DNA of 64,000 nt from Alloalcanivorax mobilis. GTDB lineage: Bacteria; Pseudomonadota; Gammaproteobacteria; Pseudomonadales; Alcanivoracaceae. Positions within the stretch are counted from its first letter, which is position 1, and each line of letters begins with the position of its first letter. Location of the stretch: the NCBI RefSeq assembly GCF_002864685.1, contig NZ_NMQZ01000014.1, forward strand, positions 1 through 64,000, given 5' to 3'. The position numbers were made by a program, and so were the translations under genes. Positions 14,330 to 59,264 of this stretch are shown here, one piece after another. Under the pieces are notes generated by a model. It saw only the letters and a program-made list of their open reading frames with translations. It did no database searches and was not told the origin of the DNA.

Positions 14330-14725
14330 CTGTTCCTCGTTTCGCCTTCTCTCCCGCTCGCCTTGCACACCGCCCATTTTGATTTTTTTGAAGCATCTGG
14401 CACCTCGAACCTTCTGTTTTTCTGGGGAACAGGGAACGAGGTGAAAGGGCCAGGCGGTGTGTCGTGGACGTTTTCCTTTTCGGTGTTACAGCGCGGGCAC
14501 GGCCTTTGCGCCGGCTATGCGCTGCCTCGCGCTGTTCCCTGCTCCCTGTTCCCGGCTCCCTAAAAAATACCCACAAAACTTCTGGTTAACCCTGCATTAA
14601 TTTTTTCCCAGTCGTAAAGTCGGGGTGGGGTTTCATAATCACTATGACAACCACCGTATGAAAATCCGCTTTCAGCCGTCGCTGCTTTTTGCCACGGCGT
14701 TTGGAATTTTCCGGGAGAACAAAAA
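14330..14725. other. Gap before the second acyl-CoA operon
   Basis: This 396-nt gap contains no gene that I can support. Its left half holds the inverted heptad pair at 14424-14561. The AT-rich segment from about 14562 to 14725 presumably contains the promoter of the plus-strand operon; GGGAGAA just upstream of 14726 is the ribosome-binding site. Confidence 0.55.
14424..14561. repeat. Inverted heptad pair with shared core
   Basis: The left arm has two 7-nt units (ggggaac, agggaac, 14424-14437). The right arm has four units of the reverse sense (gttccct, gctccct, gttcccg, gctccct, 14534-14561). The core between them contains GCGCGGGCACGGCCTTTGC at 14491-14509, a 19-mer also found at 29503-29521 inside another heptad pair. 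Confidence 0.7.
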
Positions 14726-15874
14726 ATGCAAGCTTTTCGTTTCGATCCGGTCGCCTTGCCGGAGAGCGCCAGACAGTTGCGACGAGAAGTTCGTGACTTT
14801 CTCGCCGAACAGATCAGTAAAGGTGGAATTACTCCGCACCGTAATTCCTGGGGCAGCTACGACGCTGACTTCAGTGCGTTATGCGGCGAGCGGGGTTACA
14901 TCGGCATGCGCTGGCCAAAACGCTACGGTGGCCATGAAAAAAGCGCCCTCGAGCGTTATGTGGTTACCGAGGAGATGCTTGCCGCCGGCGCGCCGGTGGG
15001 GGCCCATTGGGTCGCCGACCGGCAAAGCGGCGCCAATATCCTCGCCCACGGCAGCGAGCAGGCAAAACAGGAAATTCTGCCGGAAATCGCCGCCGGCCAG
15101 TGCTTTTTCGCGATTGGCATGAGCGAGCCCAATTCCGGCTCCGACCTGGCCGCCGCCACCACCCGAGCGGAACCCACCGAGGGTGGCTGGCTGATCAACG
15201 GCACCAAGATATGGACCAGCAGCGCGCACCGCGCGCACTACCTGATCGCGCTGGCCCGCACCGCCGCCAAAACCGAAGACCGGCACGCCGGGCTGACCCA
15301 GTTCATCGTCAAGCTCGGCGGTGACGACGTCAAAGTGCGGCCCATCTATAACCTCTACGGCGGCCATGACTTCAATGAGGTGGTGTTCGACAACACCTTC
15401 GTTCCCGCCCACCGCGTGATCGGCAAGGAAGGCGACGGCTGGCGCATGGTCACCGGCGAGCTGGCGTTCGAGCGCAGTGGGCCGGACCGCTTTCTGAGCA
15501 CCTTCCAATTGCTGCGGCAGCTTATCGATGCACTCGGCGAACAACCGGATCGCCGTGATCGCGCCGCCCTGGGCCGGCTGGTCGCCCATCTGGCCACCCT
15601 GCGCACCATGTCCACGTCGGTGGCGGGCATGTTGGAACGGGGCGAATCGCCCAACCTGGAAGCCGCTCTGGTCAAGGACATCGGCACCACCTTCGAACAG
15701 GAGATCCCCGAGATCGCCCGCTTGCTGGTGGAAGCCCGCCCCGGTCTTGAGCGTGGCGACCCATTTAACGAAGCGCTGGCCCGAGCGGTGCTTACCTCAC
15801 CGTCGTTCACCATTCGTGGCGGCACCCGGGAAATTCTGCGCGGCATTATTGCGAAAGGGCTGGGCCTGCGATGA
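14726..15874 (+). CDS. Acyl-CoA dehydrogenase, probable large partner
   Basis: This 382-residue flavoprotein has the middle-domain signature GMSEPNSGSDLAAATTRA and the segment TGELAFERSGPDRFL. At the C-terminus the sequence is IRGGTREILRG, so the Glu that precedes GT in many relatives is missing; a Glu in ELAFERSGPDR may serve instead, as in isovaleryl-CoA-type enzymes. The next gene starts inside its stop codon (ATGA) and encodes a shorter relative, a layout typical of heteromeric alpha2beta2 acyl-CoA dehydrogenases for sterols and other bulky acyl-CoAs. It is the first gene of the operon. Confidence 0.88.
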   Translation: MQAFRFDPVALPESARQLRREVRDFLAEQISKGGITPHRNSWGSYDADFSALCGERGYIGMRWPKRYGGHEKSALERYVVTEEMLAAGAPVGAHWVADRQSGANILAHGSEQAKQEILPEIAAGQCFFAIGMSEPNSGSDLAAATTRAEPTEGGWLINGTKIWTSSAHRAHYLIALARTAAKTEDRHAGLTQFIVKLGGDDVKVRPIYNLYGGHDFNEVVFDNTFVPAHRVIGKEGDGWRMVTGELAFERSGPDRFLSTFQLLRQLIDALGEQPDRRDRAALGRLVAHLATLRTMSTSVAGMLERGESPNLEAALVKDIGTTFEQEIPEIARLLVEARPGLERGDPFNEALARAVLTSPSFTIRGGTREILRGIIAKGLGLR

Positions 15875-16932
15875 GCGAACTAAAGGACATTTTTCTCTCG
15901 ACCTGCGACCGGCTACTCGGCGAATTGAACACCACCGACGCTGACGATCACGGCTGGCCACGGGCGGCCTGGCAGCGGTTGGTGGAACTGGGCCTGCCCG
16001 CAGCGCTGACGCCGCAGCACGGTGACGATGGCTTGAGCGTCGCCGACGCTCTGGCGGTGAGCGAGCTGTGTGGCTATCACACCCTGGCCTTGCCGTTACC
16101 AGAGACTCTGGTGGCGAACCGGTTGCTGGCGCTGGCCGGCTTACCGATCGGCGATCAGCCGTTGACCCTGGCGGCCACGGCGGGCGAGACCGTGCGCCTC
16201 GACCGTGAGCAGGACCATTGGCGGTTGCACGGCGAGTTGAGCGCGGTGCCCTGGGGGCGCCACGCCGACGCCGTGGTGCTGCAGGTGGAAAGCGATCAGG
16301 GCAGCCGGCTGGTGCGGATTGCCGGCGCCGGTCTTGCCTGGCGCGCGGCCACCAATCTGGCCGATGACCCGCGTGACGATGCCAGCGTGGATCTGCGAGT
16401 TGAAGACAGCCAGTGCCCGCCCTTCCCCGCCGGCTCCCCCTCGCTGCTGGAATGGGGCGCGCTGATTCGCGCCCTGCAAATGAGCGGCGCCATGCGCAAG
16501 ACACTGAAACTGGCGGTCGATTACGCCAATGAGAGGGTTCAGTTCGGTCGCCCGATCGCCCGTTTTCAGGCAATCCAGCACCAGCTCGCGGTGGCCGCCG
16601 GGCAGCTCGCCGCGGCCACCGCCGCCGCCGAGGACGCGGCCCGCCGCACCGATGGTCGCGACCATGGCTTTTCCATCGCGGTCGCCAAGGCGCGGGTTGG
16701 CGAGGCCGCCGGGCTGGTGGCGGCGATCGGACATCAGGTGCACGGCGCCATGGGCTATACCCGTGAACACACACTGCACCATGGCACCCGGAGGCTGTGG
16801 TCCTGGCGCGACGAATACGGCAACGAATCGTTCTGGCAAACACGGCTGGGCACGCTGGCGGCGAGCGGCGGCGGCGATGGCCTGTGGGCCACCCTGACCG
16901 CCCTGCAGGACAGCAGCGAGGAGCAACAATGA
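15871..16932 (+). CDS. Acyl-CoA dehydrogenase, probable small partner
   Basis: This 353-residue relative has a divergent N-terminal half and a recognisable C-terminal domain (YANERVQFGRPIARFQAIQHQ, then HQVHGAMGYTREHTLHHGTRRL). It lacks the SEPxxGSD flavin motif that its partner has, so it probably works only in a complex with the protein encoded at 14726. It overlaps both neighbours by ATGA (15871 and 16929), which supports coupled translation. Confidence 0.83.
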   Translation: MSELKDIFLSTCDRLLGELNTTDADDHGWPRAAWQRLVELGLPAALTPQHGDDGLSVADALAVSELCGYHTLALPLPETLVANRLLALAGLPIGDQPLTLAATAGETVRLDREQDHWRLHGELSAVPWGRHADAVVLQVESDQGSRLVRIAGAGLAWRAATNLADDPRDDASVDLRVEDSQCPPFPAGSPSLLEWGALIRALQMSGAMRKTLKLAVDYANERVQFGRPIARFQAIQHQLAVAAGQLAAATAAAEDAARRTDGRDHGFSIAVAKARVGEAAGLVAAIGHQVHGAMGYTREHTLHHGTRRLWSWRDEYGNESFWQTRLGTLAASGGGDGLWATLTALQDSSEEQQ

Positions 16933-17738
16933 GCGATGAACTGCTGTTCCAGGTCGACGACGGCGTGGCCCTGCTGACCCTCAACCGACCGGACAAACGC
17001 AACGCCTTCAACCGCGCCATGATCGAGCAATGGCTGCAAGCGCTGGAGCAATGCCGCACCCGGGCGGACATCGGCGCGGTGGTGCTCACTGGCGCCGGCG
17101 ACCGGGCGTTCTGCTCCGGCGGCGACATCGCCGATATGAATCGCGGCGAGCGTGGCACCTGGTCCACCAAGGACTATCTCTGGGAAGCCATCCACCGCAT
17201 TCCATTGGCGCTGGAGCGTTTGGACAAACCGGTGATCGCCGCCCTCAACGGCACCGCCACCGGCGCCGGCCTGGACATGGCGCTGATGTGCGACCTGCGC
17301 TTCTGCGCCGACCACGCCCGGCTTGGTGAAACCTACATCAAGGTGGGCCTGGTGCCCGGTGACGGCGGCGCCTACTTCCTGCCGCGCCTGGTAGGGCTGC
17401 CCAAGGCATTGGAACTGCTCTGGAGCGGCGACCTGATCGACGCCGGCGAGGCCCTGCGCATCGGTCTGGTCAACCGGGTGTATCCCAGTGACACGCTGCT
17501 GCCCGAGACGCTGGCCTTCGCCCGCCGCCTGGCGGACGGCCCGCGCCGGGCGCTGCGCCTGACCAAACGGACCGTCTACCAATGCCAGCGGTTGGATCTG
17601 AGTACCGCCCTGGATCTGGTGTCCTCGCACATGGGGCTGGTGACGCGCGGCGCCGAGCACATCGAAGGGGTGCGTGCGTTTTTGGAAAAGCGGCCCGCGG
17701 ATTTCCGTGCCGCCGGCGACCAGGAAGCTGGCCAGTAA
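16929..17738 (+). CDS. Enoyl-CoA hydratase/isomerase family protein
   Basis: This 269-residue crotonase-fold protein has the CoA-binding and oxyanion elements AFCSGGDIADM and GTATGAGLDMALMCDLRF. The segment LGETYIKVGLVPGDGGAYFL aligns with the active-site region; the acidic residue pattern differs slightly from classical hydratases (PGDGG where PGAGG is common). It most likely hydrates the enoyl-CoA formed by the dehydrogenase pair. Start chosen at the ATGA overlap; longer frames upstream have no family-like sequence. Confidence 0.88.
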   Translation: MSDELLFQVDDGVALLTLNRPDKRNAFNRAMIEQWLQALEQCRTRADIGAVVLTGAGDRAFCSGGDIADMNRGERGTWSTKDYLWEAIHRIPLALERLDKPVIAALNGTATGAGLDMALMCDLRFCADHARLGETYIKVGLVPGDGGAYFLPRLVGLPKALELLWSGDLIDAGEALRIGLVNRVYPSDTLLPETLAFARRLADGPRRALRLTKRTVYQCQRLDLSTALDLVSSHMGLVTRGAEHIEGVRAFLEKRPADFRAAGDQEAGQ

Positions 17739-17761
17739 CCCATCTCAGCGGAGGTATCTCA

Positions 17762-18511
17762 ATGCGCTTCAGTAATAAAGTCGCGGTGATCACCGGCGCC
17801 GCCCAGGGCATTGGCGAGGGCGTCGCCCGGCGGCTCGCCGAGGAAGGCGCGCGGGTGGCGTTGCTGGATCTGGACCTGCAAGGCGCCGAGCGGGTCGCCG
17901 CCACCCTGCCCGGCGACGCGCTGGCGCTGCGCTGCGACGTCAGCCAGCGGGATCAGGTTGAGGACAGCCTGGAACGGGTTCAGCAACGCTTCGGCCGGCT
18001 CGACGTGCTGGTGTGCAACGCCGGGCTGACCCGCGACAACCTGATTCACAAAATGACCGACGACGACTGGGATCGGGTCATCGACACCCACCTCAAAGGC
18101 AGCTTCCTGTGCTGCCGGGCCGCCCAGCGCTACATGGTCGACCAGCGCTACGGAAAGATCGTGCTGATGTCCTCGCGGGCGGCGCTGGGCAATCGTGGCC
18201 AGAGCAACTACGCCGCCGCCAAGGCCGGCTTGCAGGGCATGGCCCGGGTGCTGGCGATGGAGCTGGGGCCGTTCAACATCAACGTTAACGCCATCGCCCC
18301 CGGGCACATCGAAACCGAAATGACCCGCGCCACCGCCGCGCGCATCGGCATCGATTATCAGCAATTGCAGGAAAAAACCATCCAAGCCAATGCCATCAAA
18401 CGCGTTGGCCAGCCCGAAGACATCGCCGCGGCCGCCGCTTTTCTGGCCGCCGACGAAGCGGGCTTTATCACCGGCCAGGTGCTGTGGGTCGCCGGGCGGC
18501 CAACGGTCTGA
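17762..18511 (+). CDS. SDR-family dehydrogenase (FabG-like)
   Basis: This 249-residue oxidoreductase has TGAAQGIG for the nucleotide, CNAGLTRD, and a complete Ser-Tyr-Lys set (MSSRAALGNRGQSNYAAAK). It ends in a C-terminal FITGQVLWVAGG-like segment with RPTV. It would oxidise the 3-hydroxyacyl-CoA made by the hydratase upstream. GGAGG lies 7 nt before the ATG. All functional residues are in place, unlike the other SDRs in the window. Confidence 0.88.
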   Translation: MRFSNKVAVITGAAQGIGEGVARRLAEEGARVALLDLDLQGAERVAATLPGDALALRCDVSQRDQVEDSLERVQQRFGRLDVLVCNAGLTRDNLIHKMTDDDWDRVIDTHLKGSFLCCRAAQRYMVDQRYGKIVLMSSRAALGNRGQSNYAAAKAGLQGMARVLAMELGPFNINVNAIAPGHIETEMTRATAARIGIDYQQLQEKTIQANAIKRVGQPEDIAAAAAFLAADEAGFITGQVLWVAGRPTV

Positions 18512-18556
18512 CCTTCGCGGCCAACGCCGCCCATGCCAATAACAATGGAGTGTTTC

Positions 18557-20740
18557 ATGTCGACCTCGACAGCCCCGCTCGACTTTTCGCGCCTGCGCGC
18601 CCTGTTTCAACCGTCCTCGGTGGCGATTCTGGGGGCCTCCGACGACCCCGCTAAAATCAGTGGTCGCACCGTGCGCTATCTTCTGGAGAGCGGCTATAAA
18701 GGCCGGATTCTGCCAATCAATCCGCGCCGCGACCAGGTTCAGGGCCTGCAGGCCTACCCGGCGGTGGAGCAGGTACCCGGCGACATCGATCTGGCCATCG
18801 TCGCCCTGCCGGCGACGCTGGTCCTGGAGGCCGTGCAGGCCTGCGCGGATCGCGGGGTGCGGGCGTTGATACTGTTCAGCGCCGGGTTCGCCGAGACCGG
18901 CGAGGCCGGCCGCCGCCAACAAGCGCGCCTGACCCGCATTGCCCGCGAATCCGGCATGCGCATTCTCGGCCCCAACTGCCTGGGCGCGATTAATCTGCGC
19001 CACGGCATGATCGGCACTTTTACCTCGGGAATGGAAGGCGGGCTGTCGCAACCGGGCCGCATCGGCTTTGTCAGCCAGAGTGGCGCGCTCGGCTCGCACT
19101 GTTTTGCCGCCTTCCGGGAACGGGGTCTGGGTTTCAGTTACTGGGTCACCACCGGCAATGAATGCGATCTGGAGTTCGCCGATTGTCTGGCGTTTCTCGC
19201 CCAGGACCCGGACACCGACGTGATCGCCGCGTACATCGAGGGCTGCCGGGACGGCGAGAAACTGAAAAAAGCCTTGGAAGTGGCGCGCCAGAATCGCAAG
19301 CCGGTGATCTTGCTGAAGGTCGGCGAATCGGAAATCGGCGCGCAGGCGGCGGCGTCCCACACCGCTTCGCTGGCCGGTTCCGACGCCGTCTATGATGCCG
19401 TGTTCCGCCAGTACGGCGTGTGTCGCGCGCACTCGATTACCGAATTCATGGAGCTCACCTACGCCTGCCTGGGTCGCCGTTTCCCCGCCGGGGATCGCAT
19501 CGGCCTGGCCACCGTGTCCGGCGGTGTCGGGGTGCTGATGGCGGATCGTGCCTCGGCCCTGGGTCTGGATGTGGCGCCCATGCCACAGGCCGCCCAGCAA
19601 TGGATGAAGCAGCGCTGGGCGCCGGCGGCGGTGGCCAACCCAGTGGACACCACTGCCCAGGTCACCAGTGATCGCGCCCTGCTCACGGAGTTCGTGGAAA
19701 AGATGCTGGACCAGGGCGACTACCACGCCCTGGTGATCTTTCTGGCGCACACCGGGCTGGTCAAGGAAACCTCCGATCGCCTGCGCGATCAGTTGCGCAC
19801 GCTACGGCAACGCTACCCGGAACGCCTGATCATCATCAGTACGCTGTGCACGCCAGCGATCCGCGCCGATTACGAAGGCGACGGCTTCCCGGTGTTCGAG
19901 GACCCCAGCGTGGCGGTGCAGGCGGCGGCGGAGCTGATGCGCCTGGGCCGGCAGTTCAAGGCCGCCGAAGCTGGCGGCAACGGTGTGCCGCTGTTCCATG
20001 GCGGCGGCCTGCCGGCGCCGCCGGCGCACCTCAACGAATTCACCGTGAAACAGTATCTGGCGGAAGCCTGCGTGCCGGTGGTCGATGAACGGCTGGCGCA
20101 TTCCGCCGATGATGCCGCCAGCGCCGCCGCCGAAGTGGGCTACCCGGTGGTGTTGAAAATCGTCTCCCCGGACATCGCCCACAAAACCGAGGCCGGCGGC
20201 GTGATCCTCAACCTGGTCAACCCGACCCAGGTGCAATCCGCCTATCGCCAGATCATCAAGCGCATCCGCTGCCGGCACCCGGCGGCGCGCATCGATGGCG
20301 TGCTGGTTTCGCGCATGGTGATCGGCGGCACGGAAACCCTGATCGGCGTGCAGCGCGACCCGGTGTTCGGGCCGGTGGTGGCGTTCGGCCTGGGCGGCAT
20401 CTTCGTGGAAACCCTCAAGGACGTGGCGCTGCGGCCGGCACCTTTTGGTCTTGAAGAGGCGCACAGCATGATCCGCGAGATTCAGGGTTACCCGCTGCTC
20501 AGCGGCGCGCGCAATCGGCCGCCGGCGGACACCGACGCCCTCGCCCGCGCGCTGGTGGCGGTGTCCCAGGTGGCGTCGCGCAACCGCCACTCGCTGCTCA
20601 GCATGGACATCAATCCCTTCATTGTACTGCCCCGTGGCGAGGGCGCCGTGGCGGTCGACGCGCTGATGATTCAGGCCAGCGACAACGCCGCGCCCGCCCC
20701 CGGCAACGCCACCCATGAGGCGCCTTGCCATGCTTCCTGA
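18557..20740 (+). CDS. NDP-forming acyl-CoA synthetase (acetate-CoA ligase family)
   Basis: This 727-residue single-chain enzyme has, in order, a CoA-binding Rossmann domain (SVAILGASDDPAKISGR), succinyl-CoA-ligase-like domains with SQSGALGSHC and the phospho-His region ASHTASLAGSDAVYDA, and a C-terminal ATP-grasp domain (GYPVVLKIVSPDIAHKTEAG). It would activate a free acid to its CoA ester with release of ADP and phosphate, so it likely supplies the substrate of this operon. GGAG is 6 nt before the ATG at 18557. Substrate unknown. Confidence 0.88.
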   Translation: MSTSTAPLDFSRLRALFQPSSVAILGASDDPAKISGRTVRYLLESGYKGRILPINPRRDQVQGLQAYPAVEQVPGDIDLAIVALPATLVLEAVQACADRGVRALILFSAGFAETGEAGRRQQARLTRIARESGMRILGPNCLGAINLRHGMIGTFTSGMEGGLSQPGRIGFVSQSGALGSHCFAAFRERGLGFSYWVTTGNECDLEFADCLAFLAQDPDTDVIAAYIEGCRDGEKLKKALEVARQNRKPVILLKVGESEIGAQAAASHTASLAGSDAVYDAVFRQYGVCRAHSITEFMELTYACLGRRFPAGDRIGLATVSGGVGVLMADRASALGLDVAPMPQAAQQWMKQRWAPAAVANPVDTTAQVTSDRALLTEFVEKMLDQGDYHALVIFLAHTGLVKETSDRLRDQLRTLRQRYPERLIIISTLCTPAIRADYEGDGFPVFEDPSVAVQAAAELMRLGRQFKAAEAGGNGVPLFHGGGLPAPPAHLNEFTVKQYLAEACVPVVDERLAHSADDAASAAAEVGYPVVLKIVSPDIAHKTEAGGVILNLVNPTQVQSAYRQIIKRIRCRHPAARIDGVLVSRMVIGGTETLIGVQRDPVFGPVVAFGLGGIFVETLKDVALRPAPFGLEEAHSMIREIQGYPLLSGARNRPPADTDALARALVAVSQVASRNRHSLLSMDINPFIVLPRGEGAVAVDALMIQASDNAAPAPGNATHEAPCHAS

Positions 20741-22711: not shown

Positions 22712-22721
22712 GAGAAACAGC

Positions 22722-23141: not shown

Positions 23142-23183
23142 TCGAGGCGGTGAGCCGCCGCACAGCGCGGCCGGAGAATCCGA

Positions 23184-24560: not shown

Positions 24561-24572
24561 CGGAGATCACCG

Positions 24573-25472: not shown

Positions 25473-25596
25473 AAGCGCGGAACAGGATAAAGAAAACAGG
25501 GGACCATGCGAGGCCATGCCGAATTGGATGCCGTTCCTTGTGGGCAGGGGCTTCAAGCTTCAAGTGAGGTGCAGCGGCGTCGGTTTTTTTGGTTTA

Positions 25597-28006: not shown

Positions 28007-29410
28007 TTGTCCCCCAGCGCCCTCCCCCAAAGCGACACCTCATCCCCCCTTCCACCGCAAGACGGTGTCCCCAAACCGCAGCGCTACTGGGCCATTCTGG
28101 CGGTGGCGGTGAGTACCGGCATGGCGGTGATGGACAGCAGCATCGTCAACGTGGCGCTGCCGGTGATCGCCGACAACCTGAATGTCAGCGCCTCCGAATC
28201 GGTGTGGGTGGTGAACGCCTATCTGATCGCCGTGGCGACCACTCTGCTGCCGCTTTCCGCGTTGGGCGACATCGTTGGCTACCGGCGCGTCTACCTGGCC
28301 GGGCTGGCCTTGTTCACCGTGTTCTCACTGGTTTGCACTTTTTCCGATTCGTTGCCGATGCTGGCCGCGGCGCGCTTTTTTCAGGGGCTTGGCGCGGCCG
28401 GCATCATGAGCGTCAACGCCGCCCTGATCCGCTTTATTTATCCGACCCGGAAACTGGGCAAAGGCATCGGTATCAGCGCCATGGTGGTGGCGTTCTCCAC
28501 CGGCATCGGGCCGACGGTGGCGGCGGGGATTCTGTCGGTGGGCGACTGGCCGTGGTTGTTCGCGGTCAACATTCCCCTGGGTTGTGTGGCGTTTTTTCTG
28601 GCCGCGCGCAGCCTGCCGTTTACCCCCCGCGCCAGCCATCGCTTTGATTTTCTTAGCGCGGTGCTCAATGTGCTCGGCATCGGTTTGCTGGTGACCGCCA
28701 TCGATGGCCTCTCTCACGGCGTCTACTGGCCCTGGTCGCTGTCACAAATCGCGCTGGCGGCGACGGTGCTGTGGCTGTTGGTGCGTCGTCAGCTCAATCG
28801 CAGCTCCCCCCTGCTGCCAGTGGATTTGCTGCGCAGCCGGCCGTTCGCGCTGGCCGTCTGCACGTCAATGTGTGCTTTCGCCAGCCAGATCACCGCCTTT
28901 ATCGTGCTGCCGTTCTACTTGCACGACACCCTCGGTTACAGCCCGGTGCAGACCGGCCTGCTGATGACGCCCTGGCCGGCGGCGGTGGTGGTGGCGGCAC
29001 CGATCGCCGGGCGGCTGTCGGACCGTTACCCGGTGGGCGCGCTGTGCGCGCTGGGGCTGTCGTTGAAGTTGATCGGACTGCTGCTGATCGCCGCGCTGCC
29101 GGCCCAGCCATCGCTGGCGGCCTTGCTGCCTTGCATGGCCCTGTGCGGGCTCGGCTTCGGTTTCTTTCAGGCGCCCAACAACCGCGCCATCATCGGCGCC
29201 GCCCCACGCCATCGCAGTGGCGGCGCCGCCGGCATGCAAGGCACCGCGCGCCTGCTTGGGCAAAGCACCGGGGCGGCGCTCACCGCGCTCGCCTTCGCGC
29301 TCACCGGCGGCGGCATCGTCGCGCCGCTGCTGATGGCGGCGGGTTTCGATGCCCTGGCGGTGTTGGTCAGCCTGTCGCGCCTGCGCAAGCGCCCGGACCC
29401 TGCGGTTTAG
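28007..29410 (+). CDS. MFS transporter, DHA2 family (paralogue 2)
   Basis: This 467-residue pump is closely similar along its length to the product of 23184-24560 (for example MAVMDSSIVNVALPVIADNL, FFQGLGAAGIMSVNAALIR). It too appears to begin with TTG (28007), with CGGAG 7 nt upstream; an in-frame ATG at 27911 would add a non-conserved, unlikely leader. It has the 14-helix DHA2 layout. It stands alone and is divergent from a porin gene, so the two may act in exchange of the same compound. Confidence 0.84.
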   Translation: MSPSALPQSDTSSPLPPQDGVPKPQRYWAILAVAVSTGMAVMDSSIVNVALPVIADNLNVSASESVWVVNAYLIAVATTLLPLSALGDIVGYRRVYLAGLALFTVFSLVCTFSDSLPMLAAARFFQGLGAAGIMSVNAALIRFIYPTRKLGKGIGISAMVVAFSTGIGPTVAAGILSVGDWPWLFAVNIPLGCVAFFLAARSLPFTPRASHRFDFLSAVLNVLGIGLLVTAIDGLSHGVYWPWSLSQIALAATVLWLLVRRQLNRSSPLLPVDLLRSRPFALAVCTSMCAFASQITAFIVLPFYLHDTLGYSPVQTGLLMTPWPAAVVVAAPIAGRLSDRYPVGALCALGLSLKLIGLLLIAALPAQPSLAALLPCMALCGLGFGFFQAPNNRAIIGAAPRHRSGGAAGMQGTARLLGQSTGAALTALAFALTGGGIVAPLLMAAGFDALAVLVSLSRLRKRPDPAV

Positions 29411-29462
29411 GGTTACCAAGGGGCGTGGAGCGACGCCGTTGGGGCGTTGGGGGTGGAGACGA

Positions 29463-29606
29463 GTTTTTAGTTTTCAGTGTTCAGTGTTCAGTTTTCCGTG
29501 GAGCGCGGGCACGGCCTTTGCCCCACCATGGCCGCACCCGTGTTGTCGCCTGAAGCTTGAAGCTTGCATTGCGCATGTTGCGTGAAGCGTGCCGCGTGCC
29601 AGCGTG
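29463..29606. repeat. Inverted heptad pair with shared core
   Basis: The left arm has five 7-nt units (gttttta, gttttca, gtgttca, gtgttca, gttttcc; 29463-29497). The right arm has eight units in unbroken 7-nt phase (from tgaagct to cagcgtg; 29551-29606). The core contains the 19-mer GCGCGGGCACGGCCTTTGC (29503-29521) shared with 14491-14509. The words of the two arms differ, so this is not a simple inverted duplication. Confidence 0.72.
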
Positions 29607-29607
29607 T

Positions 29608-29630
29608 CGCGGCGCCCTTCGGGCGCCGCG
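29608..29630. terminator. Strong hairpin between convergent genes
   Basis: CGCGGCGCCC and GGGCGCCGCG form a perfect 10-bp stem with loop ttc, 12 nt before the LysR stop codon at 29642. There is no T-run on either side. It follows directly on the heptad array. A bidirectional transcription block is plausible. Confidence 0.5.
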
Positions 29631-29641
29631 AACAACCGCCT

Positions 29642-30586
29642 TCATGCCCCGCCGCCAGCGTTGTCGGCGACCACGCCGGCTTTCATCATCCGCCACACCT
29701 GGCCGGCGGCTTCCGACAGCGGCCGCGAACGCAGCCGGTAGGCGGCGGTTTCCACCACCACGCCCATGTCCAGGGGCAGCACCTCAATGGCTCCGGCTTC
29801 CCGGTCACCGGTCAGCAGAATGTCCGGCGCGATGGTGATCGCCCGGCCGCTACGGCACAGCGCCAAACAGGAACTGATGGTGCCCAGTTGAAACTCAGCG
29901 CCGCGCCGGCGCAGTAATTCCCGCTGGAACCAGAACGGCGCCTGCGCGCCGTATTCCGGTGCCACTCGTGGCAACGCCCAGGGGCGGGACAACACCATGC
30001 GCAGGGCGGCGTCCGGGTCGTGGGCAGCACGGTGGCCAGCGCCGCGCAGCCATTGTCGCGGCGCGACCAGCCGCACCGGCATGCGCAGCAGCGGCTGAAT
30101 CACGCCGTCGGCCGGATCCGGCAGCTCTTGCAGCTTACGCACGTCGTAGACGAGAAAGTCGTGGCGGTAGGCGTACAGGCCCTCCAGCAACGCTTCGAAG
30201 TGATCGGTTTGAATGTCCAGGCGGATCGCCGTGCCCTGCCGCTGCAAATGGGGGGCCAGGGCCTGGGAGACGATGTCGGGAACGAACGGACCACAACCGA
30301 CCTTCACCAGCCCGGCCAGGCCGTCGTGGAAGCTTTCGATCACGCTGTCCAGGCCGGCGGCTTCGTCCAGCACCCGCACCGCCTGGCGGTACACCAAGGC
30401 GGCCAGCTCAGTGGGCCGCAGCGCACGGGTATGGCGCTGAAACAGCGCCGCGCCGACGCTTTCCTCCAGCTTTTGCAGGCTGCGGCTCAATGCCGGCTGA
30501 GTGAGACCCAGGGCGCGGGCCGCCGCCGACACGCTGCCGTGCTCATAGACGGCGCGGAACTGAGCCAGATGGTGAAGCTGCCACAT
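29642..30586 (-). CDS. LysR-family regulator next to sulfatase
   Basis: This 314-residue regulator begins with a winged helix (HLAQFRAVYEHGSVSAAARA, LTQPALSRSLQKLEESVG) followed by an effector domain from about residue 90. The ATG at 30586 follows GGAGAG. It is divergent from the Tat-sulfatase gene with about 110 nt between, so it likely controls that gene. Effector unknown. Confidence 0.87.
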   Translation of the reverse strand: MWQLHHLAQFRAVYEHGSVSAAARALGLTQPALSRSLQKLEESVGAALFQRHTRALRPTELAALVYRQAVRVLDEAAGLDSVIESFHDGLAGLVKVGCGPFVPDIVSQALAPHLQRQGTAIRLDIQTDHFEALLEGLYAYRHDFLVYDVRKLQELPDPADGVIQPLLRMPVRLVAPRQWLRGAGHRAAHDPDAALRMVLSRPWALPRVAPEYGAQAPFWFQRELLRRRGAEFQLGTISSCLALCRSGRAITIAPDILLTGDREAGAIEVLPLDMGVVVETAAYRLRSRPLSEAAGQVWRMMKAGVVADNAGGGA

Positions 30587-30695: not shown

Positions 30696-32414
30696 ATGGA
30701 CGACATCACACGCCGCCAGGTTCTCAAAAACATCGCCTTGGGCGCCGCTGCCCTGGGCGCCGCCCCCGCCTTGAAGGCGGCCCCGGCGCTGGGCAAGGGC
30801 ACATCGTCAGCCACAAAGGGCCCGCCGAACGTGCTGTTGCTGGTGTCCGACCAGGAACGCTGCTGGGAGGATCTGCCCGGCGCCCTGGATCTGCCCGCCC
30901 ACGAAAAACTGCTCACGCGCGGCACCGGCTTCACCCGCTACTACGCCAACACCTCGCCGTGCTCGCCGTCGCGTTCGGTGATGTACACCGGCCAGCACAC
31001 CATGCGCACGCACATGACCGCCAACCTACACGCGCCGCCCTTCCCCACCCTGAACCGGGATTTGCCCACCCTCGGCCATGTTTTTCGCCGGCTCGGCTAC
31101 CACACCGCCTACAAAGGCAAGTGGCACCTTTCCGACATCAAGGACGGCCCCGGTTTGATGTACGGCAGCTATCCCAGCCGAACCGATGCGCTGGATCAAT
31201 TCGGTTTCAGTGAATACAACCTCACCGGCGATGTGCACGGCTCGGTGTGGCAGGGTTTTATCGCCGATCGCATGGTTTCCGGCGAGGCCAGCCAATGGCT
31301 GATGCGCACCGGCCAGCAACTGGATAAGCCCTGGCTGTTGGCGGTGAATTTCGTCAATCCCCACGACATCATGTTTTTTTCCAGCGGTGAGAAACAGGAG
31401 CGCTCACGCACCAACCCGGCGTTCATGGCACCGTTGCGCCCCGCGCCCCACGACCCGATTTACCGCCGGGACTGGTCCCAGGTTGGTTTGCCGGCGTCGT
31501 TCTATAAGGACGATCTGCACGACAAGCCGTGGAGCCACCGTTCCTACGCCCAGGTGATCGACAGCCTGTATGGCCGCATGGACCGCGACGACGAAGCCGC
31601 CTGGCTGGCCAATCAAAGCTACTACTTCAATTGCATCCGCGACGTGTCGCGACAGGTCGACCAGGTACTGCAGGCTCTGGAAGAAAGCGGGCAATTGGAT
31701 AACACCATCATCGTGTACACCGCCGACCACGGCGAAATGGCCGGCGCCCACGGCCTGCGTCAGAAAGGCCCGATGATCTACAAGGAAAACAGCCGGGTAC
31801 CGTTGATCGTCAGCCATCCGGACGTGGCCGGCGGCCGCAGCGTGGAAAATCTCGGCTCGACGCTGGATCTGCTGCCCACGCTGGTGTCACTGGCCACCGA
31901 AGGTCAGGGGCAAAGCGACACGCCTGGCGTGGACCTCAGCCCGGCCCTGGGTGGCCAGGTCACCGACCGCGACCGCAAGGGCATTCTGTTCGCCTATGGC
32001 GTCACGCTTTACACCGACCCGGAAACCACCCGCCGGCTGGTCAAGGACGGCGACGAAATCACCCCGGTGAAACTGATGACCGAGTTTCTCAAGCAGCTTC
32101 GCCTGGGGCCCGAGCTCGGCAACCGTGGCCTGCATCGCGGGGTCTACGACGGCCGCTATAAGTTCGCCCGCTACTTCAGCCCGGACAGCCACCACACCCC
32201 GAAAGACTGGGACACCCTCACCGGGCATAACGACCTGGAACTCTACGACACCCTCAACGACCCGGACGAACTGGTCAATCTGGCCGCCAAACCGGAGCAG
32301 GTTAAACCGTTATTGATGGCAATGAGCAACCGCACCAACGCTCTGGTGGCGGAAGAAGTGGGCGAAGACAACGGCTCGGAATTTCCAGGACCGTCAATGA
32401 TGTACACGCTCTAG
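30696..32414 (+). CDS. Tat-exported sulfatase (alkaline phosphatase superfamily)
   Basis: This 572-residue hydrolase has an N-terminal twin-arginine signal (TRRQVLKNIALGAAALGAA), so it is exported folded to the periplasm. Type I sulfatase features are the metal-binding NVLLLVSDQ, the modification site C89-S-P-S-R (Cys converted to formylglycine) and DHGEMAGAHG near residue 344. It would release sulfate from an organic sulfate ester; a phosphonate ester substrate is also possible in this superfamily. The required sulfatase-modifying enzyme is not in the window. A stem-loop terminator follows. Confidence 0.88.
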   Translation: MDDITRRQVLKNIALGAAALGAAPALKAAPALGKGTSSATKGPPNVLLLVSDQERCWEDLPGALDLPAHEKLLTRGTGFTRYYANTSPCSPSRSVMYTGQHTMRTHMTANLHAPPFPTLNRDLPTLGHVFRRLGYHTAYKGKWHLSDIKDGPGLMYGSYPSRTDALDQFGFSEYNLTGDVHGSVWQGFIADRMVSGEASQWLMRTGQQLDKPWLLAVNFVNPHDIMFFSSGEKQERSRTNPAFMAPLRPAPHDPIYRRDWSQVGLPASFYKDDLHDKPWSHRSYAQVIDSLYGRMDRDDEAAWLANQSYYFNCIRDVSRQVDQVLQALEESGQLDNTIIVYTADHGEMAGAHGLRQKGPMIYKENSRVPLIVSHPDVAGGRSVENLGSTLDLLPTLVSLATEGQGQSDTPGVDLSPALGGQVTDRDRKGILFAYGVTLYTDPETTRRLVKDGDEITPVKLMTEFLKQLRLGPELGNRGLHRGVYDGRYKFARYFSPDSHHTPKDWDTLTGHNDLELYDTLNDPDELVNLAAKPEQVKPLLMAMSNRTNALVAEEVGEDNGSEFPGPSMMYTL

Positions 32415-32460
32415 CGAACGCTGAATAACACCCCACCCTTTTCAAGCCCTTGGGGGGCTG

Positions 32461-32487
32461 CCCCGGCCACGGCCGGGGTATTTTATT
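32461..32487 (+). terminator. Terminator of the sulfatase gene
   Basis: CCCCGGCC and GGCCGGGG form a perfect 8-bp stem (32461-32478) followed by TATTTTATT, 47 nt past the sulfatase stop codon. Confidence 0.75.
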
Positions 32488-32491
32488 GAAC

Positions 32492-32627
32492 GGAACAGGG
32501 AACAGCCCGCCGGGCGGGCGGCTGCAAGCTTCAAGCTTCAAATGTGTGCCACGGCGCCGCTTTTTGTAGCTTGCGGCTTGCGGCTTGCAGCTTGAAGCCC
32601 CCGCCCTGTTCCCCGCATCCTGTTTTT
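32492..32627. repeat. Nested inverted heptad arrays
   Basis: The left side has ggaacag twice (32492-32505) and then tgcaagc, ttcaagc, ttcaaat (32523-32543). The right side runs nine heptads without a phase break (32565-32627): four gct-ending words, tgaagcc, cccgccc, tgttccc, cgcatcc, tgttttt. The inner words pair with the inner left words and the outer words with the outer left words, so the array is nested. It ends on the stop codon of the membrane-protein gene. Confidence 0.75.
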
Positions 32628-38688: not shown

Positions 38689-38700
38689 GTAAGGGGGCAG

Positions 38701-38802
38701 TTTTCAGTTTTCAGTTTTCAGTTTTCAGTTTTCAGTTGGGAGACTTTTCCCGTTGGCCAGGTTTACTAAACACTGAACACTGAAAACTGAACACCGAAAA
38801 CC
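38701..38802. repeat. Inverted heptad pair between convergent genes
   Basis: The left arm is ttttcag repeated five times without error (38701-38735). The right arm has about five opposite-sense units (actgaac, actgaaa, accgaaa and variants, 38764-38802). A 28-nt core separates them. The left arm starts 12 nt after one stop codon, and the right arm ends 9 nt before the stop codon of the convergent gene. Confidence 0.85.
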
Positions 38803-50475: not shown

Positions 50476-50480
50476 GGGGC

Positions 50481-50584
50481 GTTTTCAGTTTTCAGCTTTC
50501 AGCTTTCAGCTTTCAGTTTTCAGTTTTCAGTTTTCAGTCGCGATTGTGCGGGTTTTACTGAACACTGAACACTGAAAACCGAAC
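50481..50584. repeat. Inverted heptad pair (longest left arm of this word)
   Basis: The left arm has eight units of gttttca, three of them gctttca (50481-50536). The right arm has four units (actgaac, actgaac, actgaaa, accgaac; 50557-50584). A 20-nt core separates them. The right arm ends 2 nt before the stop codon at 50587, and the left arm starts 5 nt from the hrpB start codon. It may therefore affect the hrpB ribosome-binding region. Confidence 0.85.
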
Positions 50585-50586
50585 CC

Positions 50587-51357: not shown

Positions 51358-51456
51358 GCTTGTTCTCCTTATTGGTTCGCCAGTGAGTCAAGGGGAAGGC
51401 CCTGCAGATCGGCACCGGGCGCACCGTAACGCTGACAGTGCCTCTACAGCGGCGCC

Positions 51457-51591
51457 GTAGGAGCAGGCCGTGCAAGCGACGTCTTTTGGCCGAATGGCAC
51501 GGTGTCTTTGCCGCGAACCTGACGGGTTTGCGGTCAGACGTCCGACGCGAAAACCAGAATCAAACCCGTCGCTGGCTGGGCCTGCTCCTAC
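51457..51591. repeat. REP/REPIN-like inverted element
   Basis: Perfect 13-bp terminal arms GTAGGAGCAGGCC (51457-51469) and GGCCTGCTCCTAC (51579-51591) enclose a second perfect 10-bp pair GACGGGTTTG/CAAACCCGTC (51521-51530, 51561-51570). GTAGGAGC is the start of many Pseudomonas REP sequences. The element sits in the 284-nt gap between the TenA-like gene and the transglutaminase gene. Two REP units facing each other (a REPIN) is the best guess. Confidence 0.72.
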
Positions 51592-51641
51592 ACAAAGATA
51601 GAAACCTTTCCGCCGCGTGGGCAGGGCCGATGGCACCGCCG

Positions 51642-54616: not shown

Positions 54617-54631
54617 GGCGCTTCCTCCCGC

Positions 54632-55543
54632 TCAGTGACGCACCACCGGTACGCTCTGCAGCAGCGACTGGGTCATGGCGGCCACGCTGCCGCCCTGGCG
54701 CGACTGCAAGCGGTGCTCGGCCACCGCCGACCACACCGCCTGCACGTCTTCGGGCAACACGTAATTACGGTCGTGGAGCAACGCCCAGGCACGGGCGGCG
54801 CGCAACAGCCCCAGGCCGGCGCGTGGCGACAGCCCGGCCTCCAGGCGGTCGTCGGCGCGGGTGGCTTCCAGCAAACGCTGGATGTAATCCAGCAGTTCGT
54901 CGGTGGCGCGCACCTTGGCGACATGGGCGGTCAGTTTGATCAGACCGCTGGGGTCGATCACCGGCTTCAGGGCGCGGGCCGCTTCGCGCAGATCGCCACC
55001 GGCCAGCAGCGCGCGCTCCACCTCCGGCGAGGGGTAACCCAGGGAAATGCGCATCAGGAAACGGTCGAGTTGGGATTCGGGCAGCACGAAGGTACCGGCC
55101 TGGGTCACCGGGTTCTGGGTGGCGACCACGAAAAATGGATCGGGCAGCGCCCGGGTGGCGCCATCCAGCGTCACCTGCCGCTCTTCCATCGCTTCCAGCA
55201 AGGCGCCCTGGGTCTTGGGGGTGGCCCGATTGATCTCGTCGGCGAGCAGCAATTGGGTGAACACCGGCCCCTCACGAAGAGAAAACGCACGGCTGTCGGG
55301 GTCGAACACGGAAACACCGAGGATATCGGCGGGCAGCATATCGCTGGTGAACTGAACACGGCGGTAGTCGAGGCGGAACACCCGCGCCAGCGCATGCGCC
55401 AGCGTGGTCTTGCCCATCCCCGGCAGATCCTCGATCAACAGATGACCGCCCGCGAGCATGCAGGCCAGCGCCAGTTTCAGCTGTTCGGTTTTACCCAGCA
55501 CCACGCTGCCCACCTGGGCCAGCGCTTTATCCAACGCCTGCAT
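54632..55543 (-). CDS. MoxR-family AAA+ ATPase
   Basis: This 303-residue ATPase has Walker A (LPGMGKTTLAHALA), Walker B (LLLADEINRATPKTQGALLE), a sensor TQNPVTQAGTFVLPESQLDRF and the lid domain RAGLGLLRAARAWALL. MoxR ATPases work as chaperones or activators with the DUF58 and transglutaminase proteins encoded downstream. Start at 55543, 20 nt from a heptad array. Confidence 0.92.
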   Translation of the reverse strand: MQALDKALAQVGSVVLGKTEQLKLALACMLAGGHLLIEDLPGMGKTTLAHALARVFRLDYRRVQFTSDMLPADILGVSVFDPDSRAFSLREGPVFTQLLLADEINRATPKTQGALLEAMEERQVTLDGATRALPDPFFVVATQNPVTQAGTFVLPESQLDRFLMRISLGYPSPEVERALLAGGDLREAARALKPVIDPSGLIKLTAHVAKVRATDELLDYIQRLLEATRADDRLEAGLSPRAGLGLLRAARAWALLHDRNYVLPEDVQAVWSAVAEHRLQSRQGGSVAAMTQSLLQSVPVVRH

Positions 55544-55562
55544 AAACCCCCTCGAAGAAGAA

Positions 55563-55686
55563 AGTTAAAAGTGAAAAGTTGAAACGCGAAAAAGCTCGCC
55601 GCTATCCGGTTTCACCGTGCCCACGCCCAAAGTCCACGGTGGGCACCGGCCCAGCTCCTTTTAACTTTTAACTTTTAACTTTTAAC
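55563..55686. repeat. Inverted heptad pair with core hairpin
   Basis: The left arm has four heptads (agttaaa, agtgaaa, agttgaa, acgcgaa; 55563-55590). The right arm has ttttaac four times without error (55659-55686), ending 5 nt before the metZ stop codon. Between them the core has the inverted pair GTGCCCAC/GTGGGCAC (near 55617 and 55639). The left arm lies upstream of moxR, so the region doubles as its promoter. Confidence 0.85.
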
Positions 55687-55691
55687 TTGTT

Positions 55692-56903
55692 CTAGAATCC
55701 GAGCGCTTTGAGCCCCCTGCTCAAGTCGGTTTTCAGATCTTCCACGTGTTCCAGGCCAATCGCCAGCCGGATCAGGTTTTCTGTGATGCCGGCCCGCTCT
55801 TTTTCCTCGGGGTCGACGCGGCCGTGGGTGGTGGAGCCGGGGTGGGTGATGGTGGATTTCACGTCACCCAGGTTGGCGGTGATGGAAATCAGGCGGGTGC
55901 CGTCCATGAAACGCCAGGCGGCCTGGCGGTCGCGGTGGCCGTCGCTGTCTTCCACCTCGATGGCGATCACCGCGCCAAAACCGCTTTGCTGACGCGCCGC
56001 CAACTGGTGCTGAGGGTGGCTCTCCAGGCCGGAATAATGCACCCGGGCGATGCCCGGTTGCTGCTCCAGCCAGCGCGCCAGCAGCAGGGTATTTTCCGAA
56101 TGCGCTTTCATGCGCAGGCCGAGAGTTTCCAAGCCCTTGAGGAACACCCAGGCGTTGAACGGGCTCATGCTGGGCCCAGCGGAGCGCACGAACCCGAGCA
56201 CTTCGTCGGTGAGTGTGGCCGGGCCGACCACCGCGCCACCCAGGCAACGGCCCTGGCCGTCCAGATATTTGGTGGCGCTGTGAATCACCAGATCGGCACC
56301 CAGCTCAATCGGCTTTTGCAGCGCCGGCGTGCAAAAACAATTGTCCACGACCAACAACGCGCCCTGGTCGTGGGCAAGCCTGGCCAGCGCTTCGATGTCA
56401 CCGATCTCGGAGAGCGGATTGGACGGGCTTTCCAGAAACAGGATTTTGGTTTCCGGACGCATGGCGGCACGCCATTGATCCAGATCGGCCAGATCCACCA
56501 GCGTGGTGTCGATATTGAATTTCTTCAAATAACGGTTGTAGATCACATTGGTGGTGCCGAACACGCTGCGCGAGCTGACCACGTGATCGCCGGGCGCCAG
56601 CAGCGCGAAGAAGGTGCTGCTGATGGCCGCCATGCCGGAGGCCAGCGCCACCGCCTTTTCACCGCCTTCCATGGCGGCGAGCCGCTCTTCGAAGGCGCGC
56701 ACCGTGGGGTTGGTGAAACGGGAGTAGACATTGCCCGGCTGCTCGCCGGAAAAGCGCGCGGCGGCCTGGGCCGCGCTGTCGTACACAAAGCTCGAGGTGA
56801 GAAAGATCGGGTCCGAGTGCGCCATCTCGTCGGTGCGCAACTGCGCCCAGCGGATCGCCAGGGTATCGGTATGCAGTTCACTCGGGTCCGGTTTATCGCT
56901 CAT
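55692..56903 (-). CDS. metZ: O-succinylhomoserine sulfhydrylase MetZ
   Basis: This 403-residue PLP enzyme of the Cys/Met-metabolism family makes homocysteine directly from O-succinylhomoserine and sulfide. The PLP lysine is K212 in HSATKYLDGQG; YSRFTNPTVRAFEERLA and GDVKSTITHPGSTTHGR are hallmarks. As in Pseudomonas it follows purF, here after 21 nt. GAGG lies upstream of the ATG at 56903. Confidence 0.93.
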   Translation of the reverse strand: MSDKPDPSELHTDTLAIRWAQLRTDEMAHSDPIFLTSSFVYDSAAQAAARFSGEQPGNVYSRFTNPTVRAFEERLAAMEGGEKAVALASGMAAISSTFFALLAPGDHVVSSRSVFGTTNVIYNRYLKKFNIDTTLVDLADLDQWRAAMRPETKILFLESPSNPLSEIGDIEALARLAHDQGALLVVDNCFCTPALQKPIELGADLVIHSATKYLDGQGRCLGGAVVGPATLTDEVLGFVRSAGPSMSPFNAWVFLKGLETLGLRMKAHSENTLLLARWLEQQPGIARVHYSGLESHPQHQLAARQQSGFGAVIAIEVEDSDGHRDRQAAWRFMDGTRLISITANLGDVKSTITHPGSTTHGRVDPEEKERAGITENLIRLAIGLEHVEDLKTDLSRGLKALGF

Positions 56904-56924
56904 TACCACCTCGGCTGGTCTGAA

Positions 56925-58448
<1,524 letters not shown>

Positions 58449-58460
58449 GTTGAGAATCCT

Positions 58461-58982
58461 CTAGGACGAAGGGGTCGTGCCAAGGGCCGGATGGCCATTG
58501 AAGTTCATCAGATAGGCCAGCAACTGCTCCGCCATACGGCGGGTCCAGTCTTCCAGCAGAGCGAAATGCGGCACCAGCATGGACTGCCGCCACCAGGGGT
58601 CCTGGCCAAAAAAGCGGTGCCCAAGGGCCACCAGAACCACCACCACCAACGCGCCACGCAATGCGCCGAATACCATGCCCAGCAGACGATCGGTGCCACT
58701 CAGGCCGGTCACTCGGATCAGCTCGCCAAGCAAATGATTGATCAACGCCCCGACCACCAGGGTGATCGCGAACAGGGTACCGAAAGCGACCGCGGTGCGT
58801 AGACTCGGGGTCTGTATCTGGTCTTGCAGAAGCAGCTCCAGCGCCGGGCTGAACAGGCGCGCGACGAGAAAGGCGGCCACCCACGTCAGCAGGGAAAAGG
58901 CTTCCCGGGTGAAACCGCGACGCACACTCAACAGTGTCGACACGGCGATGATAAACAGGATGATGCCGTCTGCCAGATTCAT
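58461..58982 (-). CDS. cvpA: CvpA family membrane protein
   Basis: This 173-residue inner-membrane protein has four helices and the family start LADGIILFIIAVSTLLSVRRG, followed by GFTREAFSLLTW. CvpA was named for a role in colicin V production and is linked to envelope functions. It precedes purF in the usual order. Confidence 0.92.
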   Translation of the reverse strand: MNLADGIILFIIAVSTLLSVRRGFTREAFSLLTWVAAFLVARLFSPALELLLQDQIQTPSLRTAVAFGTLFAITLVVGALINHLLGELIRVTGLSGTDRLLGMVFGALRGALVVVVLVALGHRFFGQDPWWRQSMLVPHFALLEDWTRRMAEQLLAYLMNFNGHPALGTTPSS

Positions 58983-59063
58983 GGAAAAGCGCGCGGTTGG
59001 AACAGGTCGCAGAGTCTAACAGAGGCTCCCTCGCTTGCACATGGGTTGGTTGGCTGGGCGGTG

Positions 59064-59264
59064 GACGCGAGACGCCAAGCGCCAAGCGCCGGACGCCGGA
59101 CGCCAGACGCTAGACGCTAGACGCTAGACGCTTAAAGACAACCCCGGCGGTTTCGTATTGGCTGGCAGCACGAACACAGCACCTACCGTAGCCGCAACGC
59201 CTTCAACCACGGGTTTTGATTCTAGCGTCCGGCGTCCAGCGTCTAGCGTCTGGCATCCAGCCTC
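59064..59264. repeat. Inverted heptad pair with ten-unit left arm
   Basis: The left arm has ten heptads in unbroken phase (59064-59133), from gacgcga to gacgcta and gacgctt. The right arm has six opposite-sense heptads (tagcgtc, cggcgtc, cagcgtc, tagcgtc, tggcatc, cagcctc; 59223-59264), the last running into the stop codon of the SPOR gene. The core is about 89 nt. The region lies between two genes of the conserved block, where Pseudomonas has a simple gap. Confidence 0.85.

What the first reader, a model, noticed from the sequence alone, without database searches (positions are those of the whole stretch)
14424..59264. A family of 7-nt-period repeat arrays whose words differ from site to site
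Seen directly: at 153, 11733 (period 14), 14424, 29463, 32492, 38701, 50481, 55563 and 59064, intergenic DNA is built of tandem 7-nt units. The word changes by site (ttttcag, gcttcaa, ttttaac, gacgcta, ggaacag), but the period stays exactly seven. Most sites are inverted pairs around a short unique core, and right arms often touch a stop codon. A fixed period with free sequence suggests a copying or slippage mechanism that measures length, or an RNA with a 7-nt register, rather than spread of one repeat. Heptameric short tandem repeats are known in heterocystous cyanobacteria; a word-switching, paired form is not something I know to be described.
Basis: partly seen in the sequence, partly recalled or inferred. 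Interest (0 to 1): 0.82.

Follow-up and report, generated by a model that had tools for sequence, protein, structure and literature searches.

The report
Palindromic gene-end elements with seven-base-repeat arms
This marine bacterium carries many short palindromic DNA elements next to the ends of genes, built from arms of repeated seven-letter words in several families; similar arrays have been reported before, mostly one word at a time.

Summary
In 864 kb of the host genome (an Alloalcanivorax relative), period 7 gives 77 tandem arrays; other periods from 2 to 13 give 0-3, except 12 with 6. Of 95 arrays, 72 have a reverse-complement partner within 250 nt; the reversed-word control gives 3. 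The interpretation needs correcting. Words are not free: they form about seven families dispersed over the genome, and which word stands on the left is fixed within a family (79 of 79 assignable paired arrays). Cores are not all unique: F3 and F4 have family cores, with full-length copies in unrelated flanks. These are therefore dispersed palindromic elements, 61-206 bp here. They sit near gene 3' ends: in 20 of 58 convergent, 27 of 242 tandem and 1 of 89 divergent gaps. In sister species the same gaps are empty or hold the same element with drifted words; at one site the left arm has 9 units against 3. Precedents in print: heptamer inverted pairs in Xanthomonas, 7-nt indels in Cyanothece. New here: a multi-family repertoire with fixed polarity, nesting, and a phage contig with 22 such arrays. 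No mobilising enzyme was found; no function is shown.

The parts
153..214 (.). F2 pair, short (CAAGCT-type left arm 153-171, AGCTTG-type right arm 197-214)
   Evidence: read directly; below the array threshold, so not counted among the 95
11733..11791 (.). period-14 repeat made of two alternating 7-nt words; no partner seen; probably not the same thing
   Evidence: fold z +0.41
14424..14561 (.). F5 pair: left arm GGGAACA type 14424-14438, right arm CTGTTCC type 14532-14561
29462..29566 (.). F1 left arm 29462-29496 without an F1 partner; F2 right-type array 29551-29566
   Evidence: F1 array called unpaired
32492..32614 (.). nested element: F5 arms outside (32492-32505, 32605-32614), F2 arms inside (about 32518-32541, 32568-32600)
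   Evidence: fold of the inner part z -2.23, 5 of 200 shuffles as stable
38698..38802 (.). F1 element: left arm CAGTTTT x5.7 (38698-38737), right arm 38765-38802, in a convergent gap
   Evidence: fold z -4.59; no F1 array seen at this gap in 5 related loci, L031-L035
50481..50584 (.). F1 element: left arm 8.3 units (50481-50538), right arm 50557-50584
   Evidence: fold z -3.84
55560..55690 (.). F3 element: left arm GAAAGTT type from 55560, right arm TTTTAAC x4.4 (55656-55690)
   Evidence: fold z -6.25; same element in G003 and G006, absent in G005 and G007
59064..59261 (.). F4 element: left arm GACGCYR x10 (59064-59132), right arm 59223-59261, core ending in GGGTTTT
   Evidence: absent at the same gap in G003, G005 and G006

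Best explanation
The arrays are the arms of dispersed, non-coding palindromic elements (61-206 bp) that lie mostly just after stop codons. Several families coexist in the genome. Each has its own 7-nt word, a fixed order (the word on the left, its reverse complement on the right) and, in F3 and F4, its own core. SHOWN: period, pairing, fixed polarity, family cores, position near gene 3' ends, presence or absence between species, and arm length differing by whole units at one shared site. INFERRED: (1) copies arise by duplication of the whole paired element, which would explain the fixed polarity and the full-length copies in unrelated flanks. (2) The arms then lengthen, shorten and become uniform by slipped-strand replication in 7-nt steps while the words drift by substitution. 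(3) In the cell the element acts as a 3'-end hairpin that insulates or stabilises transcripts from either side. F3 and F4, whose arms or cores put A-rich sequence before and T-rich sequence after a hairpin, may act as two-way terminators. The enzyme that moves the elements is unknown. Why the period is 7 is not explained by anything done here.
For: Polarity: of 80 arrays with a partner at >=11 of 14, 79 fit a family word at >=6 of 7 and all 79 follow one left/right order per family; the other array (L173:769) fits none. F6 and F8 had arrays on one side only, so they test little. In a separate word scan 50 clusters read simply left-then-right and 1 right-then-left. Cores: two pairs of F3 or F4 cores are about 91% identical over their length. 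Five F3 copies, the query included, on three contigs (84-100% over 106 nt) align across arms and core; two of them share about 50 nt more on both sides, out to F2 arrays, and one shares it on the right only. Four F4 copies align across arms and core and diverge outside. F4 cores carry AACCC near the start in 13 of 19 and GGGTT near the end in 11 of 19 here, 11 of 14 and 10 of 14 in G005. Position: elements in 20 of 58 convergent, 27 of 242 tandem, 1 of 89 divergent gaps; convergent against divergent p 1e-8. Presence or absence: the F4 site 59064 is absent in 3 of 3 sister species aligned; the F3 site 55560 is present in 2 and absent in 2 of 4. Unit steps: G005 against G004, left arm 9 and 3, right arm 5 and 3. 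Hairpins: RNA fold z -2.2 to -8.7 at 6 paired sites.
Against: No clear covariation: in-register identity of the variable bases of F4 arms within a site is 0.164 against 0.237 across sites (p 0.94) in this genome, and 0.348 against 0.249 (p 0.07) in G005. Terminator-like signals in 29 of 51 elements (shuffled 10 of 51) are not clearly above other gaps (12 of 27 convergent, 80 of 194 tandem), and 0 of 7 F1 elements show one. No target-site duplication could be read in the aligned empty sites. Counts of Y1/RAYT transposase matches (3 here, 2-5 in sister species) do not follow element abundance. At two of three shared sites unit number is nearly unchanged. One divergent-gap copy exists.
Confidence: 0.55

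Rival explanations
1. Plain heptamer microsatellites: each array is born where it stands by slippage, pairs arise by local template switching, and there is no mobile unit and no function.
For: Heptamers are over-represented in many bacterial genomes (Rehm 2015, introduction read). Long pure arrays, such as 22 units, look like slippage. Arms do not covary clearly. In viral contigs most F1 arrays (29 of 32) and all 92 assessable F2 arrays are unpaired.
Against: Fixed polarity within families and shared cores at unrelated sites are not expected from local birth. Position is strongly tied to gene 3' ends.
Confidence: 0.25
2. Miniature transposons mobilised by a Y1/RAYT-type or other transposase, with heptad arms as end-binding repeats.
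For: Full-length copies in unrelated flanks; species-specific expansions (F4 815, 571 and 146 hits at one mismatch in three species, 0-24 in the ten others); Y1 matches in 13 of 13 genomes.
Against: Y1 numbers do not follow element numbers; no target duplication seen; the single GTAG or CGTC end tag that defines tagged REPs (PMC3733652, abstract and passages read) was not seen. The sequence CGTC does occur in F4 right-arm units.
Confidence: 0.15
3. The arrays are RNA motifs: heptads between stop codon and terminator bind a protein in a 7-nt register, and symmetry gives the same tag to both convergent transcripts.
For: [quoted passage not shown] MacGregor 2015 (PMC4679880, abstract) proposed post-transcriptional binding for TAACTGA.
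Against: Many different words in one genome would need many proteins; no significant shared word grammar across families (p 0.08 and 0.19); no Rfam match at gathering score in the window.
Confidence: 0.05

Closest known systems
GGGAATC heptamer repeats of Xanthomonas (Rehm 2015, PMC4692102; abstract, introduction, sections 13 and 16 and passages read)
   Same: 7-nt tandem arrays, mostly intergenic, near stop codons on the coding strand, under-represented between divergent genes; 70 and 75 convergent inverted pairs in two genomes; orthologous arrays differ in length, single or paired type usually kept
   Different: One word type studied, discussed as a G-quadruplex; no conserved core, nesting or several co-resident families seen in the parts read. 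Most words here have no G-run of three.
TAACTGA repeats of Beggiatoaceae, cyanobacteria and Bacteroidetes (MacGregor 2015, PMC4679880; abstract and section 10 read)
   Same: 7-nt arrays, mostly intergenic; indels mostly in 7-nt increments between two Cyanothece strains; a range of other heptamers in Microcystis
   Different: In the main genome 169 direct-repeat sets and one indirect, mostly just upstream of start codons; not described as palindromic elements in the parts read
REP/BIME elements and tagged REPs (Di Nocera 2013, PMC3733652; abstract and passages read)
   Same: Palindromic, many copies, several families per genome, convergent and unidirectional gaps, downstream of genes, possible RNA hairpins
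   Different: REPs are 20-40 bp with a GTAG or CGTC tag; the word heptamer does not occur in that paper
MITE with an internal minisatellite, Porphyromonas (PMC4596501; search listing and start of abstract only)
   Same: Tandem repeats inside a small inverted-repeat element
   Different: Not compared further
Heptad repeats in a Nostoc tRNA-Leu intron stem (recalled from memory, no call)
   Same: Recalled as degenerate heptads in two strands of one hairpin
   Different: One locus within an intron; not verified here

Membership tests
Heptameric simple sequence repeats (Xanthomonas/Nostoc type) | tandem unit of exactly 7 nt in excess over other periods | tested here: met
   77 arrays at period 7 against 0-3 at other periods from 2 to 13 except 12 (6) in 864 kb
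Heptameric simple sequence repeats (Xanthomonas/Nostoc type) | convergent inverted pairs near stop codons (Xanthomonas) | tested here: met
Heptameric simple sequence repeats (Xanthomonas/Nostoc type) | GGGNATC word with quadruplex potential | tested here: not met
   GGGAATC x3 has 0 exact matches in this genome; the consensus words of F1-F4 have no G-run of three. Quadruplex folding itself was not tested.
REP / RAYT system | high-copy palindromes at gene 3' ends | tested here: met
REP / RAYT system | 20-40 bp unit with a GTAG or CGTC tag at one end | tested here: not met
   elements are 61-206 bp and bounded by heptad arrays; CGTC recurs in F4 right-arm units but not as a single end tag
REP / RAYT system | matching Y1/RAYT gene flanked by the element | not tested
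   3 Y1_Tnp matches in the genome; their flanks were not examined for elements
MITE | terminal inverted repeats, non-coding, dispersed | tested here: met
MITE | target-site duplication | tested here: inconclusive
   none readable at 69-92% flank identity
Bidirectional intrinsic terminator | GC-rich hairpin between A-run and T-run | tested here: inconclusive
   F4 cores: AAA near start and TTT near end in 11 of 19, shuffles mean 0.14, max 2; overall rate 29 of 51 close to other gaps

The most novel reading that the evidence does not exclude
A general process, active in bacteria and in phage genomes, adds repeats to both strands at the base of 3'-end hairpins in steps of exactly seven bases whatever the word, for example fold-back copying by a polymerase or reverse transcriptase that advances one 7-nt footprint per cycle. 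This would build inverted heptad arms of many words with fixed polarity.
Probability: 0.1. Interest if true: 0.85.

Novelty: new variant of a known kind. Interest (0 to 1): 0.5.

Why it matters
The heptamer reports that I could read centre on one word type each. Here several word families coexist in one genome with a common architecture: heptad arm, core, inverted arm, mostly just after stop codons, at 51 paired sites in 864 kb. Families differ between sister species, so gain, loss and length change can be compared at the same gaps. That makes the old question of why seven testable by strain-level sequencing. It also gives annotators a reason to treat these gaps as elements and not as isolated microsatellites.

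Tried and rejected
1. Free words: rejected, words form dispersed families. 2. A shared grammar of left words across families (an AG anchor): suggested by eye, not significant when family polarity was flipped (p 0.08 with 13 word sets including three published ones, 0.19 with 10). 3. Compensatory change between arms: not significant in F4. One F3 copy in G006 looks matched nearly unit by unit, but that is a single case read by eye. 4. Palindrome continuing beyond the arms: 0 of 50 sites above the 99th percentile of cross-site scores, although individual nested cases exist (window 32492; copies). The two halves of a core match each other a little better within a site than across sites (8.83 against 6.70, 26 cores), again with 0 above the 99th percentile. 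5. RAYT as driver: counts do not follow abundance. 6. Terminators as the general role: not clearly above other gaps. 7. Xanthomonas word in the class sample: 0 of 274 genomes, so the polarity comparison with Xanthomonas could not be made on sequence. An F4-with-core pattern gave 0. Only 3 of 32 F1 arrays (all three in the usual order) and 0 of 92 assessable F2 arrays there are paired (16 further F2 arrays lay too near a contig end). Several of the 32 F1 arrays share one flank, so they are not all independent. Recurrence of a word is therefore not evidence for the element. 9. Rfam: no match at gathering score in the window. 10. Distribution of F4: 4 of 274 class genomes, three of them with one hit each. 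11. Alignments A1 and A2 mixed orientations of the copies; they were replaced and should not be used.
Full report
ORGANISM. The closest matches to a decarboxylase next to the 38698 array are Alloalcanivorax species at 89-92% protein identity, with one Alcanivorax metagenome bin at 94% (best segments). The genome has 4,098,096 bases in 92 contigs and the window is contig 6. The species name was not obtained.

THE OBSERVATION. Within the window, stretches with at most two mismatches in 21 compared positions occur only at period 7 and its multiples, of periods 2-40. For a wider sample I took 40 stretches of 20 kb. In 864 kb, arrays scoring 14 or more number 77 at period 7, with 0-3 at other periods from 2 to 13 except 12, which has 6; the high counts at 14, 21 and 28 are multiples of 7. 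The stretches come from contigs 1, 4, 6, 12 and 23, which I first saw because they hold F1 or F4 hits, so density may be slightly high. The period contrast is not affected.

PAIRING AND POLARITY. Of 95 arrays (score 12 or more), 72 have a reverse-complement partner at 12 of 14 or better within 250 nt; the reversed word gives 3 and the complement 10. At 11 of 14 or better, 80 are paired. Of these, 79 fit a family word at 6 of 7 or better and none breaks the left/right order of its family; one (L173:769) fits none. F6 and F8 have arrays on one side only in this count. A separate scan with family words found 50 simple left-then-right clusters and one right-then-left. That scan also lists many single doublets, mostly F4 and F2, some of which will be chance matches.

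FAMILIES. In left-arm orientation: F1 TTTTCAG/TGTTCAG, F2 CAAGCTN, F3 AAAAGTT/GAAAGTT, F4 GACGCYR, F5 GGGARCA, F6 CAGGAWW, F8 GTCKGAC. The labels are mine. F4 has 598 exact three-unit matches here (overlapping starts counted) and one match each in 3 other genomes of 274 in the class sample. With one mismatch it has 815 here; the 12 sister species hold 571 (G012), 146 (G005) and 0-24. A 1-kb query with the F1 element found F1 arrays in this genome only, among 13 of the genus; only 36 of 107-229 first-look candidates were scored in the 12 others, so F1 arrays there may be missed. F2 is in 23 of 46 family genomes, including all 17 of one sister genus. In one sister-genus array (L196) the word changes in register from GCTACAA to GCGAAGA.

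CORES. Merging pairs gives 51 sites. F4 cores tend to begin near AAAACCC and end near GGGTTTT, with one of several inner palindromes; the same holds in G005. Two F4 copies 1.1 kb apart in inverted orientation are 92% identical through the core. With orientation corrected, four F4 copies align across arms and core and diverge outside. Five F3 copies on three contigs align across arms and core; two share about 50 nt more on both sides, out to F2 arrays, and a third shares it on the right only, so an F3 element inside an F2 shell has been copied as a whole. F1 cores run from 0 to 161 nt; F1 and F2 cores of 20 nt or more gave no match to another core at E 0.01.

PLACE. Genes were called by a simple codon-usage script of mine, which errs at some sites, for example 55561. 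Gaps of at least 60 nt number 58 convergent, 242 tandem and 89 divergent; 20, 27 and 1 of them hold the midpoint of an element, and 49 of 51 sites are placed. Fisher tests: convergent against divergent p 1e-8, convergent against tandem p 6e-5, tandem against divergent p 0.0016. An earlier count by nearest genes gave 19, 28 and 1 sites, 1 inside a called gene and 2 at stretch ends. An element itself lengthens its gap, which inflates the share somewhat. In tandem gaps the element lies a median 6.5 nt from the upstream stop and 60.5 nt from the next start (28 sites, p 0.0015).

COMPARISON WITH SISTER SPECIES. The F4 site 59064 is absent in G003, G005 and G006. The F4 site at L188:6166 is absent in the same three, where the gap is 33 nt. 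The F3 site 55560 is present in G003 and G006 with the same layout and drifted words, and absent in G005 (4-nt gap) and G007 (29 nt). An F4 site in own stretch L111 is shared with G002 with similar unit number and drifted words. A site in G005 is shared with G004, with left arm 9 and 3 units, right arm 5 and 3 and core 90 and 42 nt. A G005 site (L204:12511) is empty in G006 at 89-92% flank identity. No target duplication could be read.

STRUCTURE AND FUNCTION. Folding as RNA gives z -4.6, -3.8, -6.3, -7.7, -8.7 and -2.2 at six paired sites. The variable bases of F4 arms do not covary significantly within sites. Terminator-like signals: 29 of 51 elements on either strand, 10 of 51 after shuffling, but 12 of 27 and 80 of 194 in other convergent and tandem gaps; 0 of 7 F1 elements. 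A 3'-end hairpin role is therefore an inference from place and fold, and termination is plausible only for F3 and F4.

ELSEWHERE. One IMG/VR contig (six pieces, 36.7 kb, no overlap of 60 nt or more at 99% identity) has 22 period-7 arrays scoring 14 or more, with words such as GAACRTC and GAGTTGA. Among 23 arrays at the lower cut, 10 are partnered, forming five pairs, four of one word and one of another; the four have the same left/right order. Two of its genes match terminase large subunit and portal families. The architecture is thus not confined to this genus, and can occur in a phage or prophage.

LITERATURE. Seen: PMC4692102 (abstract, introduction, sections 13 and 16, passages), PMC4679880 (abstract, section 10), PMC3733652 (abstract, passages), PMC4666352 (passages), others in listings only (searches). 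The paired form for one word and 7-nt indels are in print. In what those five searches showed I saw no description of several co-resident families with fixed polarity and family cores; most subscription papers are not held, and cyanobacterial repeat papers that I recall were not read.

VERDICT. A real and abundant class of palindromic elements with heptad arms: a new variant of known heptamer repeats and of REP/MITE-like elements. The reason for seven remains open.

Noticed in passing
L450, L456, L457, L464, L478, L480 (IMGVR_UViG_3300012347_000612): A phage-type contig (terminase and portal genes) carries 22 period-7 arrays of several words, five inverted pairs among them; found through a control pattern.
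   Followed up: partly
L213:9655-9713 (G003) and L033, gap matching window 29410-29642: In the sister species the same gap holds a pure period-14 array (CGCCTAAGGTATAA) in place of the heptad arrays.
   Followed up: no
L033 and L213, gap matching window 32414-32627: Several copies of a different palindrome (TGTAGGAGCGACTTTAGTCGCGAT type) fill the gap; it resembles a REP-type repeat (recalled, not tested).
   Followed up: no
window 14493-14509 and 29505-29521: The same 17-mer GCGGGCACGGCCTTTGC lies in the cores of an F5 site and the mixed F1/F2 site, and near-copies occur in F3 cores.
   Followed up: partly
L118:11785-11808 and L118:16284-16335: F1 right-arm arrays without a left arm, 4.5 kb apart; possible relics of broken elements.
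   Followed up: no
L196 (sister genus), 1496-1583: One array passes from one word to another in register, through a hybrid unit.
   Followed up: no
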